From: Cypionkella aquatica
Lineage (GTDB): Bacteria; Pseudomonadota; Alphaproteobacteria; Rhodobacterales; Rhodobacteraceae
Length of the DNA stretch: 64,000 nucleotides
NCBI RefSeq assembly: GCF_030161095.1
Contig: NZ_BSPP01000005.1
Location: 235,833 to 299,832 of the forward strand
Reading direction: 5' to 3'
Both the position numbers and the translations under genes were made by a program. The notes under the pieces were generated by a model. That model made no database searches, had not been told where the DNA came from, and was given only the letters and a program-made list of their open reading frames with translations. Below are positions 27,211 to 51,968 of this stretch, in pieces (position 1 is the first letter of the stretch; every line of letters starts with the position of its first letter).

Positions 27211-27677
27211 TGACCCGGCACCGCGACCCTTTGACCAAAGACCTCTTTAGCTGGCAGCCGCCTAAGGTGGCTGTTGGCTATGGTCCTGATGTTGCTGGGC
27301 GCGGAGCCTTGGAAAACAAGATTGCGCGGCTGATTTCGCGTGCGCTGCGTGATGCCAGAGCAGAGGGGCGACTGGACCGCGCTGATATTGCGGGCCGCAT
27401 ATCGCTTTATCTGGGGCGCACGGTTTCAGAGGCAATGTTGAACAAATGGTCGTCAGAGGGCTCAGAAGATCATCGTATCCCGTTGGACGCGTTCATCGCC
27501 CTTGTTGATGCAACAGGTGCGAAGGATTTGCTGGGCTTTGTGCCGGGTGAGTTCGGGCTGACGGTCATTGAAAGCGAATACGCTGAAATGATCGAAGAGC
27601 AGCTTTTGGACGAGCATATCGAAGAAATGCAGTCGCGCAGACAAGTGCTTTCGGCGCGTCGGAGGGTGCGGAAATGA
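27210..27677 (+). CDS. Early prophage protein, unknown function
   Basis: 155 residues, TGATG overlap with the ParB-like gene and ATGA overlap with the transposase gene. It reads DLFSWQPPKVAVGYG near the start, IARLISRALRDARAEGRLDRADIAGRISLYLGRTVSEAMLNKWSSEG in the middle and a charged C-terminus. The middle segment looks like an HTH. Homologues in Mu-like phages of alphaproteobacteria sit in this place, directly before MuA; the job is unknown. Confidence 0.7.
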   Translation: MTRHRDPLTKDLFSWQPPKVAVGYGPDVAGRGALENKIARLISRALRDARAEGRLDRADIAGRISLYLGRTVSEAMLNKWSSEGSEDHRIPLDAFIALVDATGAKDLLGFVPGEFGLTVIESEYAEMIEEQLLDEHIEEMQSRRQVLSARRRVRK

Positions 27678-29827
27678 CGCAGGTTTTCTTCACAGCACGC
27701 GAGTTGGCCGAGGTCGCCACAAAGCGCGGCGTTACCGCCTTCCCGCAAAGCGAGCGTGGCGTTCAAGTTCATGCGGCCCGTGAGGGCTGGATAGATTTGC
27801 CGCCGAACCTTTGCCGTAAGCGCAAAGGCCTTGGCGGTGGGCGCGAGTATCACCAGTCTCTACTGCCATTTGAATTGCAGCAGGCATTGGCCAGCAGAGA
27901 TATGAAAGTGCATCGGGCTGCAGAAGTCCTGCAGCGTCAGGAATCTGATGGTCGCAAACTCGCCACCCTGAAAACCGCCTCGCTTTCCGCCCGTCAGCGC
28001 GGCGTGATGGAAGCCCGGTCGCAGGTTCTGTTGGCGATAGAAGCTTATCAAATCCCGCGCGGTCAATCGCGTGCATCGGCGGTCAAGGACTTCGGCTTGG
28101 CTCAGGCAGAGTTTCGACATTGGCTGACCGATCCAGAGATGTTTGGGCTGACAGAGGCAGTCCTTACGATGGCCAATGATCGGCAGAAAGGTGACCAATC
28201 AATCAGCATCCGCACCATCCAGCGCTGGTTTGCAGCGCGTGAAGCACGCGGAGTCGCAGGACTTGCTCCGGTTGTCAGCAAAGAAGCCGATCCTGTACCG
28301 CCAGGCTTTGTGGATTTCCTGAAACACTATGCTATCGGCTCCAAACCGCACGCCACCGAGGCGCTCGCCGCCTATATGGACACCAACCCAGCATTCCCGC
28401 TGACCATTGATCAGGTGCGCCACACCCTGAAGGTCAAGCTGAACGACATCGAAAAGAACGTCGGACGCGAAGGATTGCTGACGCTGCGGTCGCGAATGGC
28501 CTATATCCAGAGGACGACCGAGGGGCTTTGGCCGACCACGATCTACACCGCCGATGGCAAAACCTTTGACGCCGAAATTGCCGATCCGGTCAGCGGCAAT
28601 GCTATCCGCCCGGAAATCACCTCGGTGCTTGATGTCGCCACGCGCAAATGTGTTGGCATTGCGATCTCGCGCAAGGAAAACGTCATTGCGGTGGTCGAGG
28701 CTCTGCGCCGATCTTGTACCAGCAACGGTGTCTGCGCGATTTTCTACACCGACCGAGGGCCGGGGTACAAAAACAAGACCGTTGACGGCGATGTCGGCGG
28801 TTTGATGGGACGCCTCAGCATCACCAAGATGCACGCGCTGCCATACAATTCGCAGGCCAAAGGCATCATCGAACGCTTCAACGGCACCTGTTGGAACCCG
28901 CTGGCCCGTCGTTTGCCCACCTACATCGGCGAAACGATGGACAAGCAGGCCGGGAATGCGATCCACAAGCTGACCCGTTCGGAAATCAAGCAATTCGGTC
29001 GTTCGAACAACCTGCCGACGTGGGAGCATTTCCTTGCGATGTGCGAACAGACCGTCACGGAATACAATGATGCACCGCACAGTGGCCTGCCAAAGATCGA
29101 AGACCCGATCACCGGAAAAATGCGGCATATGTCGCCCAACGAATGCTGGGCCTCGCATGTTGCATCGGGTTTTGAGCCCGTCACGATTGATGCTGACGAG
29201 GAAGACGATTTGTTCCGGCCCTATGAGGTGCGGATTTGTCGCCGAGCTTTGGTCGAATGGAACAAAAACCAGTATTTCCACACTGATCTGGAGGCTTGGC
29301 ACAGCCGCAAGGTCTGGGTTGGCTATGATCTGCATCGGGCCGATAAAGTTTGGGTTCGTGAGTTCGAGGAAGAAGACGGTCAGCCGGGCCGCTTGATCTG
29401 TGTGGCTGAATTCTCGGGCAACAAAGAGCGTTACATCCCCCACACCTATCAACGCGAGGCGGAAGAGAAGCGCGTCAAAGGTCAGCTTAAGCGGATCGGC
29501 AAAAAGCAGCAGCAGATCGTTGAACAGTTGGACGATGCCCGGCTCATTGATCTTGGGGTGGCGATGCCCATGCCCGTTATCACGCCGGAGCCAGAATTGG
29601 CCGAAGTGGTGCGACCGATGAATTTCCCCAAACCGAAGGCGGTGCCACGCGCGCAGCACCCGGATGTCGAGCTGGCGTTCGATGTGTTGGCTGACGCCTC
29701 AAAGCTCACCAGTGGGCGGCGTCAGCTTTTGCTGGACCTGACGGCTGGTCGGGCGGGGCGTGAGTTTTTGAGAATATCAGGCGTGGACCTTGCCATGTTG
29801 GACGACCTGCTGAGGTCCGCCGCCTGA
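27674..29827 (+). CDS. Mu-like transposase A (DDE recombinase)
   Basis: 717 residues (MuA is 663). Residues 1-65 are a Mu-type HTH (FFTARELAEVATKRGV, GWIDLP) that binds the internal enhancer. The catalytic RNase-H domain shows YTADGKTFD (Asp294), IFYTDRGPGY (Asp360) and KGIIERFNGT (Glu400), matching MuA Asp269, Asp336 and Glu392. A beta-barrel region and a basic C-terminal tail follow. It cuts phage ends and joins them to target DNA for lysogeny and replicative transposition. With MuB downstream this defines the element as a transposable phage. Confidence 0.95.
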   Translation: MTQVFFTARELAEVATKRGVTAFPQSERGVQVHAAREGWIDLPPNLCRKRKGLGGGREYHQSLLPFELQQALASRDMKVHRAAEVLQRQESDGRKLATLKTASLSARQRGVMEARSQVLLAIEAYQIPRGQSRASAVKDFGLAQAEFRHWLTDPEMFGLTEAVLTMANDRQKGDQSISIRTIQRWFAAREARGVAGLAPVVSKEADPVPPGFVDFLKHYAIGSKPHATEALAAYMDTNPAFPLTIDQVRHTLKVKLNDIEKNVGREGLLTLRSRMAYIQRTTEGLWPTTIYTADGKTFDAEIADPVSGNAIRPEITSVLDVATRKCVGIAISRKENVIAVVEALRRSCTSNGVCAIFYTDRGPGYKNKTVDGDVGGLMGRLSITKMHALPYNSQAKGIIERFNGTCWNPLARRLPTYIGETMDKQAGNAIHKLTRSEIKQFGRSNNLPTWEHFLAMCEQTVTEYNDAPHSGLPKIEDPITGKMRHMSPNECWASHVASGFEPVTIDADEEDDLFRPYEVRICRRALVEWNKNQYFHTDLEAWHSRKVWVGYDLHRADKVWVREFEEEDGQPGRLICVAEFSGNKERYIPHTYQREAEEKRVKGQLKRIGKKQQQIVEQLDDARLIDLGVAMPMPVITPEPELAEVVRPMNFPKPKAVPRAQHPDVELAFDVLADASKLTSGRRQLLLDLTAGRAGREFLRISGVDLAMLDDLLRSAA

Positions 29828-44186: not shown

Positions 44187-45131
44187 ATGGCTCCCTTAAA
44201 TACCCGGACCGCCGCCGTCATCGACCCGATCTTGTCGACCCACGCGCGCGGTTATCGCAATGCCGATTTCGTCGCACAATTCTTGTTCCCGCGCGTCACG
44301 ATCCCCAACCGCTCGATGCGCATCATCCGGTTTGGCAAAGAAGCCTTCCGCATGCTGAACACCAAGCGTGCGCCCGGCGCGGACAAAAAGCGCGTGCAAT
44401 ACGGCTATGCCTCCGATGGGGTTTCGCTGACCCAAGACGCGCTGGAAGGTGTTGTCCCGTTTGAGCACCAAGAGGAAGCCGCTGGCGTTCCGGGCATCGA
44501 CTTGGGTTCTGCCGCGATCAATATGGTGATGGACGCCATCGACCTCGGCCTTGAATATGACTGCGCCACGATGGCGCGCAATGTCGCGAACTACGATGCC
44601 AACCACAAACTGACCCTTGCCGGTGCGGCCAAATGGTCAGACGGCACCTCCGATCCGGCGGCGGATATCACCAACGCCAACGAGGCGATCCGGGCATCAA
44701 TCGGTCGCTACGCCAACACACTGACCCTCGGCCCGAAAGTGTTCAATGCGCTTTGCCGCCACCCGAAGGTGAAAGACCAGTTCAAATACACCTCGAAAGA
44801 AAGCATTACGGCTGAAATGCTCGCGGCGTTCTTCAACCTGAAAAAGGTGGTTGTCGGCACCGCTGTTTACCTGCCTGAGACGGCGGATGACTCGGTGATG
44901 GCAACCGACATCTGGGGATTGGACGCGATCCTCGCCTATGTGCCGATGACGGGGGACACCTATCAGGTGCCGTCCTACGGCTACACCTACGAGCTGAAGG
45001 GCTATCCGCACGTCGAAGTGCCCTACGCCGAGCGCAACAACGACAGCTGGATCTACCCGATCAAAGCCGAACGGCGCGCTTACATTACCGGCGCTGAAGG
45101 CGGCTTCTTGTTCACGGGGGCTTCAACCTGA
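44187..45131 (+). CDS. Major capsid protein
   Basis: 314 residues. Start IDPILSTHARGYRNADFVAQFLFPRVTIPNRSMRIIRFGKEAF, then a GYASDGVSLTQDALEGVVPFEHQEEAAG loop and TLGPKVFNALCRHPKVKDQFKYTS. The fold order (N-arm, E-loop, P-domain helices) and position after the decoration gene mark it as the HK97-fold shell protein. It resembles capsids in phages that also lack an N-terminal delta domain. Highest codon bias is expected but cannot be measured here. Confidence 0.88.
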   Translation: MAPLNTRTAAVIDPILSTHARGYRNADFVAQFLFPRVTIPNRSMRIIRFGKEAFRMLNTKRAPGADKKRVQYGYASDGVSLTQDALEGVVPFEHQEEAAGVPGIDLGSAAINMVMDAIDLGLEYDCATMARNVANYDANHKLTLAGAAKWSDGTSDPAADITNANEAIRASIGRYANTLTLGPKVFNALCRHPKVKDQFKYTSKESITAEMLAAFFNLKKVVVGTAVYLPETADDSVMATDIWGLDAILAYVPMTGDTYQVPSYGYTYELKGYPHVEVPYAERNNDSWIYPIKAERRAYITGAEGGFLFTGAST

Positions 45132-45634
45132 TGGACGACCGGATCGAAGTTACCCTGAGTTCTCCGACCAAAATCGACCTCCGTGTCCTGATGGCAGGTG
45201 TTCAGTCAGTGTCGGCAGCCGAGCTTGAGCTTCTCAAGGAAGCCGGTGTCGTTGTCACTGTCGCTGCTGTGGCCAATGAGGCTTTGGTCGCGACCCTCCC
45301 AGTTGCGCCCGTTTTCGACCAGGACGCCTTCAATGCTGCTGTCGCGGCCGAGGCCAGTAAACTTGCCAAGCAAGCCTTCGACGGTGCGCTCGATAAGCTC
45401 GAAGCCGAAGTGAAAGAACTCTCGGCACTGGCGGAGAAGGAAAAGGCCGAGCTTTTGGCGCGGCTTGATGAAGCCGGGAAACTGCTCACCGCCGAGCGTC
45501 AGAATTCTGCCGATCTGGTCGAAAAGCTGACGGTCGCAGAGGCCGACATGGCTGCTCTCAAGGCAGCACCGGCTGTCATCGCGAATACCCCCGTCGCCAA
45601 GACCACCGTCAAAAAGGGTGCAGCGACTAGCTGA
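45131..45634 (+). CDS. Phage coiled-coil protein, unknown function
   Basis: 167 residues, TGATG overlap with the capsid gene. The start IEVTLSSPTKIDLRVLMAGVQSVSAAELELLKEAGVV looks like a compact domain. Residues 70-145 are an Ala/Glu/Lys/Leu heptad coil (LDKLEAEVKELSALAEKEKAELLARLDEAGKLL). A lysine-rich end follows. It may be a head-completion or scaffold-related protein. Confidence 0.65.
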   Translation: MDDRIEVTLSSPTKIDLRVLMAGVQSVSAAELELLKEAGVVVTVAAVANEALVATLPVAPVFDQDAFNAAVAAEASKLAKQAFDGALDKLEAEVKELSALAEKEKAELLARLDEAGKLLTAERQNSADLVEKLTVAEADMAALKAAPAVIANTPVAKTTVKKGAATS

Positions 45635-45713
45635 TCGCATCGGCGCGACAGCACCTTGGCTGGGGCCGTTGTTCCCTTCGGCCCCAGCCACTTTCCTGAA
45701 CCCCGAAGCACGG

Positions 45714-45968
45714 ATGACCCCGATGAACTCTGTCGAACATGCTGCCCTTCCTGTTCATGGCTGTCGCCCCCAACCCGCTGCAGCGCTTGAGCGCGTCAAT
45801 GCGATGAAACAGATCGAAGAGCGGGTGCTGCGCGCCCTCGACGAGTTGAAAGAGTTTCCCGAAACCGATCAACGTTGGCTGGCGACCGGGCGCACCGACA
45901 TTGAAAAAGGCTTCATGGCGGTCGACCGCTCGGTGTTTAAGCCGAGCCGGGTGGAGATCGTCGAATGA
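45714..45968 (+). CDS. Acb2/Tad1-type hairpin protein, candidate anti-CBASS sponge
   Basis: 84 residues from ATG 45714 (ATG 45723 also possible). The C-terminal 50 residues form two predicted helices, with MKQIEERVLRALDELKEF then DQRWLATGRTDIEKGFMAV and DRSVFKPSRV. The 'RW.A.GRT.I..GFMA..R.V.KP' motif is the mark of the Acb2/Tad1 hairpin family. Studied Acb2 proteins form hexamers that trap cyclic di- and trinucleotides and so stop CBASS and some other signalling defences. It sits in a run of tiny overlapping genes between capsid and tail genes, a common place for anti-defence cargo. The activity is inference from the motif. Confidence 0.75.
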   Translation: MTPMNSVEHAALPVHGCRPQPAAALERVNAMKQIEERVLRALDELKEFPETDQRWLATGRTDIEKGFMAVDRSVFKPSRVEIVE

Positions 45969-46198
45969 AGTTTTTCATCTTCGATTTCAGCCCAATCGAC
46001 CGGATGATCATCCGCCTGTTCAGCTTTCTGAGCAGCTGGATCGCGTCAATGCGCGCGGCATACCGCCTGCGCATCGCGCCGAACGTCGGCTATTTGCGGG
46101 CGCGCTGGTTAGCGCATGCGCTGAACGGCCGCCGTGTTGGCGGTGTGGCCTGCGACGGCGAACTTGGTGCGCCTGCTGTCGCGAGCTTGGTGGGCTGA
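45965..46198 (+). CDS. Small basic phage protein, unknown function
   Basis: 77 residues, ATGA overlap with the Acb2-like gene. It starts MKFFIFDFSPIDRMIIRLFSFLSSWIASMRAAYRLRIAPN. The first 40 residues are hydrophobic-amphipathic and may touch membrane. The rest is Arg/Ala/Gly-rich. Placement beside the sponge candidate makes it worth testing as a second anti-defence protein. Confidence 0.6.
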   Translation: MKFFIFDFSPIDRMIIRLFSFLSSWIASMRAAYRLRIAPNVGYLRARWLAHALNGRRVGGVACDGELGAPAVASLVG

Positions 46199-46199
46199 C

Positions 46200-46619
46200 A
46201 TGACCTATGCATCCCTCAGTGACCTGATTGATCGGGCTGGCGCGGACGAAATCCGTCAAACCGCTGACCGCGACCGTGACGGCACGCCGGATGCGCCGGT
46301 CGTCGATGCGGCGCTGATGCACGCAGACAACATCGTCAACGGATATGTCCGCACCAAATATACCCTGCCTCTGGTATCGACCCCGCCGATCTTGCGCACT
46401 TGGGCGGTTTCAATCGCTCGGCATTTTCTGCACCGCAACGGACCGCCTGACTATGTGACCGCCGATTACAAGGACGCGATCAGTGGTTTGAAGGATGTCG
46501 CACGCGGTCTGGTGGCCTTGCCGGATGCGTCAGGAACTGAGCCCACCCCGACCTCGGGCAGCTTCATGTCGGAAATTCCTGACGCCCATTTCTCCAATCC
46601 GGGGGATTGGCTGTGCTGA
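46200..46619 (+). CDS. Mu gp36-like head-tail connector (DUF1320)
   Basis: 139 residues from ATG 46200, one base after the previous stop. YASLSDLIDRAGADEIRQTADRDRDGTPDAPVVDAALMHADNIVNGYVRTKYTLPL and LRTWAVSIARHFLHRNGPPDYVTADYKDAISGLKDVARG fit DUF1320 closely. These proteins form the ring joined to the portal (adaptor). Overlaps the next gene. Confidence 0.9.
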   Translation: MTYASLSDLIDRAGADEIRQTADRDRDGTPDAPVVDAALMHADNIVNGYVRTKYTLPLVSTPPILRTWAVSIARHFLHRNGPPDYVTADYKDAISGLKDVARGLVALPDASGTEPTPTSGSFMSEIPDAHFSNPGDWLC

Positions 46620-48554: not shown

Positions 48555-48922
48555 CCTGGGCGGGTGCGGCTTGGGCGCGGGGTGAATTCGCCCGCGACAA
48601 GCGCGGCCCGTCCGACATGGATCGCCTTGCGGACTCAGCCCGCGTCTTTGGCCTGACGATTGAAACCAACGACACCTTCCAGTGCGACGGGCTTTGGGAG
48701 GATCACTTAGCCGGTTGGAACGCTTGGTGTGCGGTGTCGGGCCAATGGCGCACAGCACCCCTGTCGGGAAACTGGGGCGGCAAAGTCATCTGGATCGGCC
48801 TCGACTATGCCTCCGCCCGCGCCGCCCTCGACCTCGCTGGACTGACCGTAACGCCCGAAGCTTGGGCAGATGTGCGCGCCATCGAAAGCGGCGCAATTGA
48901 GGAGCTAAACCGCCGTGGGTGA
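48551..48922 (+). CDS. Tail assembly chaperone, frameshift extension (lambda T-like)
   Basis: Made only as the C-terminal part of a -1 fusion product (48231-48551 joined to 48551-48922, about 230 residues). LTWAGAAWARGEFARDKRG leads into DMDRLADSARVFGLTIE and GLWEDHLAGWNAWCAVSGQWRTAPLSGNWGGKVIWIGLDYASARAALDLAG, which is the DUF1799-type domain. An ATG at 48617 could start it alone, but it has no ribosome site and would lose the first 21 conserved-looking residues. Confidence 0.88.
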   Translation: MTWAGAAWARGEFARDKRGPSDMDRLADSARVFGLTIETNDTFQCDGLWEDHLAGWNAWCAVSGQWRTAPLSGNWGGKVIWIGLDYASARAALDLAGLTVTPEAWADVRAIESGAIEELNRRG

Positions 48923-51900
48923 CATGCGCGTCAGTATGCTGGTCGAGATGAAAGCCGCGCAAGCGCGTGCTGAAGCGGCTGGCCTGCGCGGTGACATTGA
49001 AAAGCTGGGCACTGGGGCTGCAACGGCGGGGCAGGCGACTGGGCGTACAGCTGCCAATGTCGTCGATCTGGCAACAGCGTCGAGATCTGCCGCCTCGGCG
49101 GTCACGCAACAGACGACAGCTTTGCAACAGATGATCGCCGTCTCCACCGGCTTGGCATCGTCTACCCAATCCAGCGTGGCTGCCGAGCTCGCCCATGGTC
49201 GTGCCCTTGACGAGACCCGCGCGCGCTTCGATCCGCTGTTCGCCGCCAGCCGCCGCTATGAGATGGAGCTGCTGGCGATTGCGGATGCGGAGCGTGACGG
49301 CGCATTGACCGCCACGGGAGCCGCGCAGGCTCGGGCCAGAGCGGCGCAAAGTATGTCGCCGGTTTTGGCGGGAGTGTCCAAGAACGCGGGCACGGCGTCG
49401 GCATCCGTTGCGCAGCTGGGTTTCCAGTTCAACGATATCGGCGTCATGCTCGCGGCCGGTCAAAACCCGCTGATGCTGGCGATCCAGCAGGGCACCCAAA
49501 TCACCCAAGTCTTCGACCAGATGAAAGCTAAGGGAGAGCCAGTCGGCAAATCTCTGAAGGCGGCATTGCTCGGCATGGTGTCACCGATGAACCTGGTGAC
49601 GATGGGGGCCATCGCCATGGGCGCGGTGGTGGTCTCCGCGCTGGTTGGCCTGATCGGTGAAACCGTTACCGCCGACGAATCCATTGAAAACTTGTCGAAA
49701 TCGGCAGGTGAGTTCGCACAGGTAGCCGGTCGCAGCGTTGGGGATGTCACCAAGGAATTCGGTGGGCTGAACAGTGAAATCGTCAGGATGCAGGAAAACC
49801 TGACGGCACTCGCGGGCATCAAGGCATTGCGCGATATTGCCACTACGACCGGCGCGCTAAAAGATGAGGTCTTTGGAAGCTGGGTCGCAACGCCAAAAGA
49901 CAACATCGGCGATCTACTAGGGGCGAAAAAGCAATACTCTGAAGGCAGAGGGCTGACCTACAGTGACGATGATCCCGCCATTCAGCGGTTTCAGGACGGC
50001 CTAACACAACTTGGCGCAACTGAAGGCACCCGTAATCAGCTGCTAGCAGTACAAGGGCTTCGATCTGAACTCTTGGCCGCAGCTGGCAGCATCGGCCAAA
50101 TGAACGGCGCGCAGTCTGCCTTTTACCAAAATTTGCTGGAAACCGAAGCCGCCGTGCGCCGCATCGCGGTTGCTGAAGCCGAGCAGAACCGCCAACGCAT
50201 CGAGCTGCAGCGCGCGGCCGGGATCGAAAACGACCGTATGGGCGGGCCGACAGCGCTTGATCGCTTGACGCGCGATCCTGCTGCGGAGGCGAAAACCCGC
50301 ATTGCGGCGGACACCGCGCGCAAGTCCGCTGCGGAAGTGATCGCGGCGGCCGAGCGCGAAAATGCTTTGGCCGCAGCCAAGCTGCAGTATGGCGCGCAAA
50401 GCGTTCAGGTCCGCGCGCTTGAGGCACAGCAGCTCCTGAGGACCGTCGACGCGGAAATTCAACGTCTGGGCATCCAGCGTCAGGGCGATCAGGCGCAAGC
50501 GATGCGCGCGGCGGCTGTCCAGCAGATCGGCCTGATGGAACAGCAGCGTGCGGCAGCTGCCGAGAGCGCCCGCTCGACGATGCTGACGAGCCTGAACCAA
50601 GAGGCCGAGATCGTCAAACTGACGGCCAAATATGGCGCGGACAGCCTTGAGGTCGCCTATGCCCGCGCCGGTGCCGAGCGCGAGGCGCAAGTGGCGCTGT
50701 TGGCCTCGCAAGGCATCGCGGGTGATCAAGCCGATGAGATGATGCGGGCATGGGATGCTGCGCGGGGCATTGCCTCGGTCAACATGGCGGCGGGGATTGG
50801 GGCTGCAGCCGGTCAGGCCCAGATGCTTGCCGCCAGCCTTGGCGTGTCTTTGGCACATGCCATCGGGTTGATGGGACTGAGTGCAAAGGGCGCAGCAACC
50901 CCGAACTTTGGTCTGAGCATGGGGATCGGCTCGGAAGCCGACACTGGCCCCACTGCCTTGGGCTTTGGCAATCTGAGCAGCCTGCCGAGCCGCTATGAGC
51001 TGCCGAAGATCGTCGCGGACAAAAAACCCTCAGGCGGCGGCGGCAAAAAAGCCGAGACCGACAGCGTGCTTGAGCTGATCCGGGCGGAGCGCATGGAATT
51101 GGCCGTGCTGCGCGAGACCGATCCGGTGAAGGCCGAGTTGCTGCAAAAGTCTGAGCAACTGAAGGGTGCGACAACCGCGCAGAAGTCCGAGCTTGAGGGC
51201 TTGATCCGCACCCGCATGGCGGAAAAGACCGCGCTGGAGGCAATCAAGCAGGCGCAAGAAGAACTCAAATCTACCATGAAATCCGCCTTCGTGGGCTGGA
51301 TTTCTGGCGCGAACAGCTTCCGCGATGCCTTGAGCCAAGTGCTGGGCAAGCTGGCAGAAATGGCCGCCAGTTCGGCGTTTGACATGCTGTGGGGCGGCGG
51401 CACTGGAGGCGGAGGGGGCTTTCTCGGCAGTTTGCTGGGCGGTGTCTTGGGCGGTGGGACAAGCTCTGGCGGCACCGGGTCGCTGGGCCTGCCGCTGCCA
51501 TTTGCAGACGGTGGGTTGCTTCAGGGCAAAGGCGGGCCGCGCGAGGACAATCACGTCGTGCGAGTGTCGGCGGGGGAATACATCGTCAACGCTGCCGCCA
51601 CGGCCAATGCGCTGCCGCTGCTGCAGGCAATCAATGCAGGCGTGCCGGTGGATCAGCTGATGGGCGTGATCGCGGGCACCCGGCCTGTCGGAGCCTATGC
51701 GGACGGTGGCTATGTCGGCACAGCGCCGGTCGGGTATTCCGCGCCAGCCTCCTGGCAGGCGGGCGGCGGGCGGCAGGGCAGCGGAGGGCCTCCCGTTTAC
51801 AACATCACCAATCATCAGACGATCAACGTCGATGGTGCCACGGGCGATTCCGAGATCCGCAACATGGTGCTGGAAGGCGTGCGCGCGGGCCAAGAACTTT

Positions 51901-51968
51901 ACGACCGTGAAGTGCTGCCCGGCCGGGTGATGGAAGTTGTCGGCGATCCGCGTATTTCGGGGAGATAG
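48915..51968 (+). CDS. Tail length tape measure protein
   Basis: 1017 residues from a GTG overlapping the chaperone end. It has an Ala-rich helical N-terminus (DMRVSMLVEMKAAQARAEAAGLRGDIEKL), the signature QLGFQFNDIGVMLAAGQNPLMLAIQQGTQI near 155-185, a hydrophobic segment MGAIAMGAVVVSALVGLIGETV near 230, long helical middle, and a C-terminal region FADGGLLQGKGGPREDNHVVRVSAGEYIVNA with Gly repeats. This is the lambda-H/'prophage tail length' family. By the roughly 1.5 angstrom per residue rule the tail would be about 150 nm, a rough estimate only. Confidence 0.93.
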   Translation: MGDMRVSMLVEMKAAQARAEAAGLRGDIEKLGTGAATAGQATGRTAANVVDLATASRSAASAVTQQTTALQQMIAVSTGLASSTQSSVAAELAHGRALDETRARFDPLFAASRRYEMELLAIADAERDGALTATGAAQARARAAQSMSPVLAGVSKNAGTASASVAQLGFQFNDIGVMLAAGQNPLMLAIQQGTQITQVFDQMKAKGEPVGKSLKAALLGMVSPMNLVTMGAIAMGAVVVSALVGLIGETVTADESIENLSKSAGEFAQVAGRSVGDVTKEFGGLNSEIVRMQENLTALAGIKALRDIATTTGALKDEVFGSWVATPKDNIGDLLGAKKQYSEGRGLTYSDDDPAIQRFQDGLTQLGATEGTRNQLLAVQGLRSELLAAAGSIGQMNGAQSAFYQNLLETEAAVRRIAVAEAEQNRQRIELQRAAGIENDRMGGPTALDRLTRDPAAEAKTRIAADTARKSAAEVIAAAERENALAAAKLQYGAQSVQVRALEAQQLLRTVDAEIQRLGIQRQGDQAQAMRAAAVQQIGLMEQQRAAAAESARSTMLTSLNQEAEIVKLTAKYGADSLEVAYARAGAEREAQVALLASQGIAGDQADEMMRAWDAARGIASVNMAAGIGAAAGQAQMLAASLGVSLAHAIGLMGLSAKGAATPNFGLSMGIGSEADTGPTALGFGNLSSLPSRYELPKIVADKKPSGGGGKKAETDSVLELIRAERMELAVLRETDPVKAELLQKSEQLKGATTAQKSELEGLIRTRMAEKTALEAIKQAQEELKSTMKSAFVGWISGANSFRDALSQVLGKLAEMAASSAFDMLWGGGTGGGGGFLGSLLGGVLGGGTSSGGTGSLGLPLPFADGGLLQGKGGPREDNHVVRVSAGEYIVNAAATANALPLLQAINAGVPVDQLMGVIAGTRPVGAYADGGYVGTAPVGYSAPASWQAGGGRQGSGGPPVYNITNHQTINVDGATGDSEIRNMVLEGVRAGQELYDREVLPGRVMEVVGDPRISGR

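What the first reader, a model, noticed from the sequence alone, without database searches (positions are those of the whole stretch)
45714..46198. Candidate anti-CBASS sponge and a coupled unknown gene
The 84-residue protein ends in the Acb2/Tad1 hairpin motif (RWLATGRTDIEKGFMA..R.VFKP). Acb2 proteins trap cyclic nucleotides and block CBASS. The next gene (77 residues, amphipathic start) overlaps it by ATGA and is uncharacterised, so it may be an additional counter-defence gene. This points to CBASS or related signalling defence in the host's relatives.
Basis: partly seen in the sequence, partly recalled or inferred. Interest (0 to 1): 0.7.

Follow-up and report, generated by a model that had tools for sequence, protein, structure and literature searches.

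The report
Acb2-type phage sponge, altered pocket
A dormant virus in a bacterial genome carries a small protein of the Acb2 family, which soaks up bacterial alarm molecules, but a key residue of one of its binding pockets is replaced, and the gene beside it belongs to a small, so far uncatalogued family.

Summary
Both genes exist as described: an 84-aa ORF (45714-45968) and a 77-aa ORF (45965-46198) overlapping by ATGA. The 84-aa protein is a clear Acb2/Tad1-hairpin member (PF24729, E 2.9e-13, 50 bits against a cut-off of 27). Its AlphaFold model has Acb2/Vs.4 structures as its nine best PDB matches. It sits in the structural operon of a Mu-like prophage, just before gp36, as its homologues do in phages RcapMu and RcWaterboi. 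First, the tyrosine that corresponds to T4 Acb2 Tyr8 is a cysteine. In a capped sample of 230 other distinct homologues with a letter at that column, 226 have Tyr or Phe, 3 Cys and 1 Asp (phage T2, altered N-terminus). Published work calls T4 Y8A binding-deficient, so capture of cyclic dinucleotides should not be assumed; other conserved hairpin positions are kept. Second, the 77-aa ORF has strong coding bias and is a divergent member of a small phage family with a shared C-terminal motif; no Pfam or PHROGs model matched the members scanned. Relatives also occur in stretches without acb2, so it looks like cargo of a variable slot. No binding was tested.

The parts
45714..45968 (+). Acb2-family (PF24729) protein, 84 aa; a start at 45723 (residue 4) is also possible
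   Evidence: Pfam E 2.9e-13; Foldseek ranks 1-9 = Acb2/Vs.4; same slot as RcapMu44 and RcWaterboi gp42
45762..45764 (+). codon 17, TGT (Cys), at the position of T4 Tyr8 / Pseudomonas phage Acb2 Tyr11
   Evidence: alignments; T4 and p26 chain letters; codons
45965..46198 (+). 77-aa protein of a small uncatalogued family, C-terminal motif ALNGRRVGGVACDGELGAPAVASLVG
   Evidence: coding bias; a profile built without it from four relatives finds it at E 3e-6 for the whole sequence, 3.4e-5 for the best stretch; no Pfam, PHROGs, PADLOC or NCBIfam match
46200..46619 (+). gp36 (PF07030) head-tail adaptor, the gene that directly follows acb2 in 31 of 41 distinct loci with a gp36 match
   Evidence: PF07030 E 1.8e-31, phrog_195 E 1.1e-37; gaps
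45657..45690 (+). strong G+C-rich hairpin between the capsid genes and acb2, without a run of T
   Evidence: -42.8 kcal/mol for 45630-45720, z -4.4; the consensus scan did not call it a terminator; comparable hairpins by eye in 5 of 8 relatives folded, two pairs of which are close kin
44187..45131 (+). major capsid protein (context)
   Evidence: phrog_1005 E 3.9e-97
27674..29827 (+). Mu-type transposase (context: transposable prophage)
   Evidence: phrog_310 E 3.2e-135; next gene phrog_296 DNA transposition protein E 2.7e-35

Best explanation
The 84-aa gene is a late-operon acb2 of an RcapMu-type, Mu-like prophage. Shown: family, fold of the protomer, gene position, and Cys in place of the dinucleotide-stacking Tyr. 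Inferred: the protein still folds and oligomerises like Acb2 and still binds signals through the second, cyclic-trinucleotide site, but has lost or much weakened its cyclic-dinucleotide pocket. It would then counter trinucleotide-signalling defences (such as cA3-NucC) rather than 3',3'-cGAMP ones, and would not disturb decoy cyclic dinucleotides of a Panoptes-like guard. The 77-aa gene is accessory cargo in the variable acb2-gp36 slot, probably co-translated through ATGA. It is perhaps a small membrane- or nucleic-acid-associated protein (basic, predicted N-terminal helix of low confidence, C-terminal Gly/Cys motif); its function is inferred only weakly.
For: PF24729 match. Weak phmmer hit to Acb2 chains first in the list, E 7e-4. 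AF2 model pLDDT 83.5 with helices 22-46 and 53-75. Foldseek ranks 1-9 of 150 are Acb2 or T4 Vs.4, probability 0.99-1.00. Same slot in RcapMu and RcWaterboi. Column 17: Y 222, F 4, C 3, D 1, gap 5 among 235 other distinct proteins. The nearest seven relatives of the window protein (64-66% identical over residues 12-78) have Y. T4 Y8A is called binding-deficient and does not activate Panoptes; aromatic-to-Cys F82C lowers binding (passages). Dinucleotide and trinucleotide pockets are independent (passage of review PMC12043709). K32, R54, W55, T61, M68, R72 and F75 are kept; by counting along the aligned letters T61 is T4 T68, whose change to M lowers affinity (passage), and F75 is T4 F82.
Against: No ligand binding was measured. 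Cys is not Ala and might still support a contact. Residues of the trinucleotide site could not be read from a held paper, so its retention is inferred from conservation only. The N-terminal segment, where Cys17 lies, is modelled with low confidence (block means 49 and 57). Foldseek E-values are only 0.03-0.06 for this short protein. The substitution comes from one genome and could be private, or an error that cannot be checked here. No match to four families of cyclic-nucleotide defence was found in the own genome (SMODS, ThsB, mCpol, Cas10 palm), so there is no visible target in the present host.
Confidence: 0.45

Rival explanations
1. An ordinary, fully active Acb2: Cys17 is tolerated and the protein still traps dinucleotides and trinucleotides.
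For: Other strongly conserved hairpin positions are kept. Cys recurs at this place in two other lineages, one of them seen in six contigs of six metagenomes, so it is compatible with persistence.
Against: Tyr or Phe in 226 of 230 other distinct proteins. T4 Y8A is reported as binding-deficient.
Confidence: 0.25
2. A decaying, non-functional acb2 allele in a prophage whose hosts no longer use the matching defence.
For: No SMODS, ThsB, mCpol or Cas10-palm match in the own genome. Natural loss of Acb2 function is described in T-even phages: PMC12657218 for T2, PMC12657230 for Bas35 (passages); T2 vs.4 indeed lacks the Tyr8 segment. A11 and D71 of the window protein are also unusual among 84 relatives.
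Against: The ORF is intact with coding score 0.312 bits/codon, above the in-frame median. Prophage genes scanned are open frames with strong matches, though their completeness was not tested as such. A prophage need not meet its target defence in its present host.
Confidence: 0.22
3. The 77-aa protein is a second counter-defence factor that works together with Acb2.
For: ATGA overlap with acb2 in the window and in the two close kin L040 and L056. Phages often cluster counter-defence genes (general knowledge).
Against: L318/L319 (identical proteins) and L320 have a relative with no acb2 match in the 3-8 kb held around them; in L318 it lies just before gp36. Other inserts in the same slot are a GapR-type DNA-binding protein and other small ORFs, so the slot takes general cargo.
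Confidence: 0.15

Closest known systems
Acb2 of Pseudomonas phages (p26; PDB 8h2j, 8ixz) and T4 Vs.4 (PDB 7uq2)
   Same: PF24729 hairpin, two-helix protomer, conserved N-x-x-K and the T, M, R positions; small phage gene
   Different: Cys instead of the stacking Tyr (T4 Y8); lacks the 18 extra residues that T4 has between the helices; late-operon position next to gp36
RcapMu44 and RcWaterboi gp42 (Mu-like phages of Rhodobacter capsulatus), annotated as hypothetical
   Same: 54-55% identical, same slot between the capsid genes and gp36
   Different: they have Tyr (GYKPQ) and a longer C-terminus, and abut gp36 without a 77-aa gene
Phage T2 Vs.4
   Same: natural acb2 allele without the Tyr8 segment
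   Different: there the N-terminus is altered as a whole; here a single residue of the motif differs
Tad1 (same Pfam hairpin)
   Same: shares the C-terminal hairpin profile
   Different: Tad1 has an N-terminal beta-sheet (review PMC12043709, passage); no strand was called in the 84-aa model

Membership tests
Acb2 | significant match to the Acb2/Tad1 hairpin profile | tested here: met
   PF24729 50.2 bits, cut-off 27, profile positions 1-58 of 58; the same profile rings in 0 of 14 control genomes
Acb2 | antiparallel two-helix protomer like 8h2j/7uq2 | tested here: met
   Foldseek ranks 1-9 of 150, probability 0.99-1.00, TM 0.60-0.68 by query length, E 0.028-0.061
Acb2 | short N-terminal helix | tested here: inconclusive
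   residues 1-20 low confidence, no helix called
Acb2 as a dinucleotide sponge | aromatic residue at T4 Tyr8 | tested here: not met
   Cys17; hence not filed as a dinucleotide sponge
Acb2 as a dinucleotide sponge | Lys of the N-x-x-K motif (Lys26 of Pseudomonas phage Acb2; its role is recalled, not read here) | tested here: met
   K32; K in 226 of 235 other rows
Acb2 | hexamer assembly | not testable with these tools
   only a monomer was modelled
Acb2 | binding of cyclic di- or trinucleotides without degradation | not testable with these tools
   needs biochemistry
Tad1 | N-terminal antiparallel beta-sheet before the two helices | tested here: not met
   no strand in the model; 84 aa in all
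77-aa protein: any catalogued family | match in Pfam, PHROGs, NCBIfam or PADLOC | tested here: not met
   0 families in each at E up to 10 for the window protein; relatives from L040 and L318 also 0 in PHROGs and Pfam, not scanned in the other two

The most novel reading that the evidence does not exclude
Tyr-to-Cys at the stacking position is a recurrent natural specificity switch. At least three separate Acb2 lineages have dropped the dinucleotide pocket but kept the trinucleotide site, which would let phages keep blocking cA3-type defence without tripping guards such as Panoptes that watch cyclic dinucleotides. The adjacent 77-aa family would be a new cargo gene family of the same late-operon slot.
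Probability: 0.15. Interest if true: 0.65.

Novelty: new variant of a known kind. Interest (0 to 1): 0.42.

Why it matters
Acb2 is easily called anti-CBASS from a profile match alone; this case shows that a confident match can carry a changed key residue. If such alleles keep only the trinucleotide site, they are natural separation-of-function variants and would test whether guards such as Panoptes select against dinucleotide capture. The acb2-gp36 junction is also a usable place to look for new small cargo genes in Mu-like phages.

Tried and rejected
Rejected: 77-aa ORF as a chance ORF (coding bias; relatives). 77-aa ORF as an orphan, which the first searches suggested (searches found no convincing relative); one search gave one weak hit besides the own genome in 394 genomes (G348, E 8.5e-4), and the acb2-gp36 gaps showed the family. 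Tad1 identity (no strand in the model). The Streptomyces locus L007 matches only residues 8-37 (50%) and was treated as chance and dropped from the seed profile.

Alphaproteobacteria, and Rhodobacteraceae in particular, are inferred from the named phage hits and from a family with at least 393 genera sampled. Single-sequence model of the 77-aa protein (pLDDT 67, pTM 0.38) is too weak for a fold search, and none was run. Three Acb2 or Tad papers asked for by DOI are not held, so trinucleotide-site residues could not be checked. JBD68 was fetched from a recalled accession meant for JBD67 and not used as evidence.

Limits: searches kept only the best 80 of 301 and of 540 relatives, so the sample behind column 17 is capped and leans to near kin of the queries. 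Seven rows (L007, L018, L019, L020, L021, L022, L080) were left out when building the Acb2 profile; 311 loci were then searched with it and 304 matched. Rows with a gap at column 17 (5 of 235) are not in the 230; three of the four Phe rows (L018-L020) are divergent hairpin proteins whose alignment there is uncertain. Two homologues fetched later (L312, L313) have Tyr and are not in the count. In one search the neighbourhood of L312 was read on the wrong strand and is not used. In one search only 14 first-look candidates per genome were scored in the rows shown.

Full report
What is there. The two ORFs are at the stated places and overlap by ATGA. The 84-aa protein matches Pfam PF24729 (Acb2/Tad1 hairpin) over the whole profile with 50.2 bits against a cut-off of 27 and PHROG 717, of unknown function, at E 6.7e-9. 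PADLOC and NCBIfam have no match for either protein. A single-sequence search of the PDB finds the Acb2 chains 8h2j and 8ixz first, at E 7e-4 over residues 42-78. Next in that list, from E 0.0013, are TAL-effector repeats without a stretch that passes on its own.

Fold. With an alignment of 42 sequences (the window, two genome contigs and IMG/VR loci), AlphaFold gives a two-helix hairpin (residues 22-46 and 53-75), mean pLDDT 83.5, pTM 0.66; residues 1-20 are poorly modelled. Foldseek against the PDB counts 150 matches at E up to 10 (50 shown), none at E 0.001 or better. Ranks 1-9 are Acb2 or T4 Vs.4 with probability 0.99-1.00, while rank 10 falls to 0.35.

Setting. The window holds a Mu-like transposable prophage. 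Genes with PHROGs or Pfam matches are, in order, a ParB-like protein, a regulator, transposase, DNA transposition protein, endolysin, terminase, portal, minor head protein, neck protein, protease, scaffold/cement protein, capsid, gp36, tail terminator, tail tube, tail assembly and tail fibre. The 1017-aa ORF at 48915-51968 is taken as tape measure from length and place only. In the 8-10 kb shown, RcapMu and RcWaterboi have the same order of capsid, acb2 homologue (54-55% identical), gp36 and tail genes, with acb2 directly before gp36 and annotated as hypothetical. In a paper on these phages (PMC8601537, passages only) the terms 'cyclic' and 'CBASS' do not occur in the main text. Searches of the held library for Acb2 with Rhodobacter, and for anti-CBASS with Alphaproteobacteria and prophage, gave one paper each, unrelated by title and start of abstract.

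The changed pocket. An alignment of 18 family members, T4 Vs.4 included, puts Cys17 of the window protein in the column of T4 Tyr8, which is Tyr11 in the Pseudomonas phage protein. From 311 loci held at that time, 304 gave a profile match and 236 distinct proteins, the window's included. Among the 235 others column 17 is Tyr in 222, Phe in 4, Cys in 3, Asp in 1 and a gap in 5. The sample is capped at 80 loci per query and leans to kin of the queries. The Asp row is phage T2, whose vs.4 begins with a different N-terminus. The three Cys rows are two lineages: L038 (one contig, fetched twice) and the pair L100/L118 (six contigs). Nearest relatives of each Cys lineage have Tyr, and the Cys codons are TGT or TGC, one step from Tyr. 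So Cys seems to have arisen three times; this rests on nearest relatives, not on a tree. With so few cases the preference for Cys is weak evidence: the transition to His is as easy and was not seen, but three cases decide nothing.

Why it matters for function. [quoted passage not shown] Passages of PMC12657230 call Y8A binding-deficient and T68M affinity-lowering. The window protein keeps the residues aligned with Phe82 (F75) and T68 (T61). The review PMC12043709 (passages) says that dinucleotide and trinucleotide pockets of Acb2 are independent, the latter at the trimer interface. From this I infer weakened dinucleotide capture and possibly retained trinucleotide capture. This is inference: three primary papers asked for are not held.

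The 77-aa gene. Its codon score (0.375 bits/codon) exceeds all 470 off-frame windows and the median of 94 in-frame windows from 16 prophage genes; its own alternative forward frames score below zero, one reverse frame 0.18. First searches found no convincing relative: PDB (2 chains, E 0.48 or worse), phages (6 records, E 5 or worse), plasmids (3 records, E 2 or worse), viral contigs (none) and 289 genomes of the class (own only). In 394 genomes of the family there was one weak hit besides the own (G348, E 8.5e-4). Measuring the approximate gap between acb2 and gp36 showed that in 41 distinct loci with a gp36 match, 31 have gaps of -10 to +11 bases, 9 (window included) have 101-542 bases, and one (L103) has its gp36 match elsewhere; 186 other distinct loci had no gp36 match and 11 were too short. 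In L040 and L056 the insert starts with a 97-aa ORF that overlaps acb2 by ATGA and ends in the same motif; L318 from G348 has an 87-aa ORF of the kind just before gp36. A profile built from L040, L056, L318 and L320 without the window finds the window ORF at E 3e-6 (best stretch 3.4e-5) among 29,594 ORFs, a set that holds repeat copies of the window's locus and of the seeds; that stretch is the C-terminal motif, the N-terminal half aligns only by chance-level score. In that search L194 (E 0.0013) and L242 (E 0.074) are the next rows. L242 has a clear C-terminal likeness by eye and lies upstream of acb2 there; L194 was not followed. Relatives were sought in phages with the L318 and L040 proteins: none, and one record at E 3. 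Profile scans of IMG/VR and of 394 family genomes added no new sound member: four IMG/VR loci, each from a contig already known, and one further genome hit with three stops inside, E 7.1e-4. No acb2 match was found in the held stretches L318, L319, L320, L323, L324, L325 and L327; these stand for four sources, and the L318 and L319 proteins are identical. So the family is real but small, not tied to acb2, and found near gp36.

Other inserts in the slot. L056, L057 and L249 carry a GapR-type ORF (PF10073 E 7e-32 for the L056 copy; the other two by likeness); L059 and L037 carry another small ORF kind (by eye). This makes the acb2-gp36 junction a variable cargo slot.

Host defences. In the own genome no SMODS, ThsB, mCpol or Cas10-palm match was found. 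Controls rang in 3, 1, 1 and 5 of 14 named genomes; the mCpol control was below its cut-off. SMODS rings in 5 of 101 genomes (own included), 4 over the cut-off. One of these, G325, also holds an Acb2 homologue followed by gp36, so sponge and CBASS-type synthase do meet in one genome of the family. mCpol was found in 0 of 61 genomes, own included. Acb2 homologues are rare in hosts: own genome only among 61 genomes, 3 of 394 family genomes by protein and 5 of 289 class genomes by profile, 4 over the cut-off, the own genome counted each time.

Verdict. Member of the Acb2 family: nearly certain. Working dinucleotide sponge: unlikely but untested. The 77-aa gene: member of a small, so far uncatalogued cargo family; I favour a small membrane- or nucleic-acid-associated protein at low confidence.

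Noticed in passing
window 45657-45690: A 12-bp, very stable G+C hairpin lies between the capsid genes and acb2; comparable long hairpins sit before acb2 in L002, L004, L011, L040 and L056 but not obviously in L006, L013, L015. It may be a leaky terminator or processing site that sets late gene levels.
   Followed up: partly
L003 3438-4243 (Rhizobium phage RHph_X2_26): A gene annotated as a TIR-domain protein directly precedes the closest listed phage homologue of the window's Acb2.
   Followed up: no
L056 3652-3903, L057, L249: GapR-type (PF10073, tested for the L056 copy) small DNA-binding proteins occupy the acb2-gp36 slot in several Mu-like phages.
   Followed up: partly
L059 and L037, between acb2 and gp36: A further kind of small ORF (86-87 aa, alike by eye) in the same slot.
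   Followed up: no
L242 about 1070-1345: A small ORF with an N-terminal hydrophobic stretch and the C-terminal motif of the 77-aa family lies upstream, not downstream, of acb2.
   Followed up: partly
L313 and L314 (genome G325): A relative genome holds both an Acb2 homologue next to gp36 and a CBASS-type SMODS synthase.
   Followed up: no
L040 2995-3357: This Acb2 homologue (120 aa) has a C-terminal extension of some 35-40 residues.
   Followed up: no
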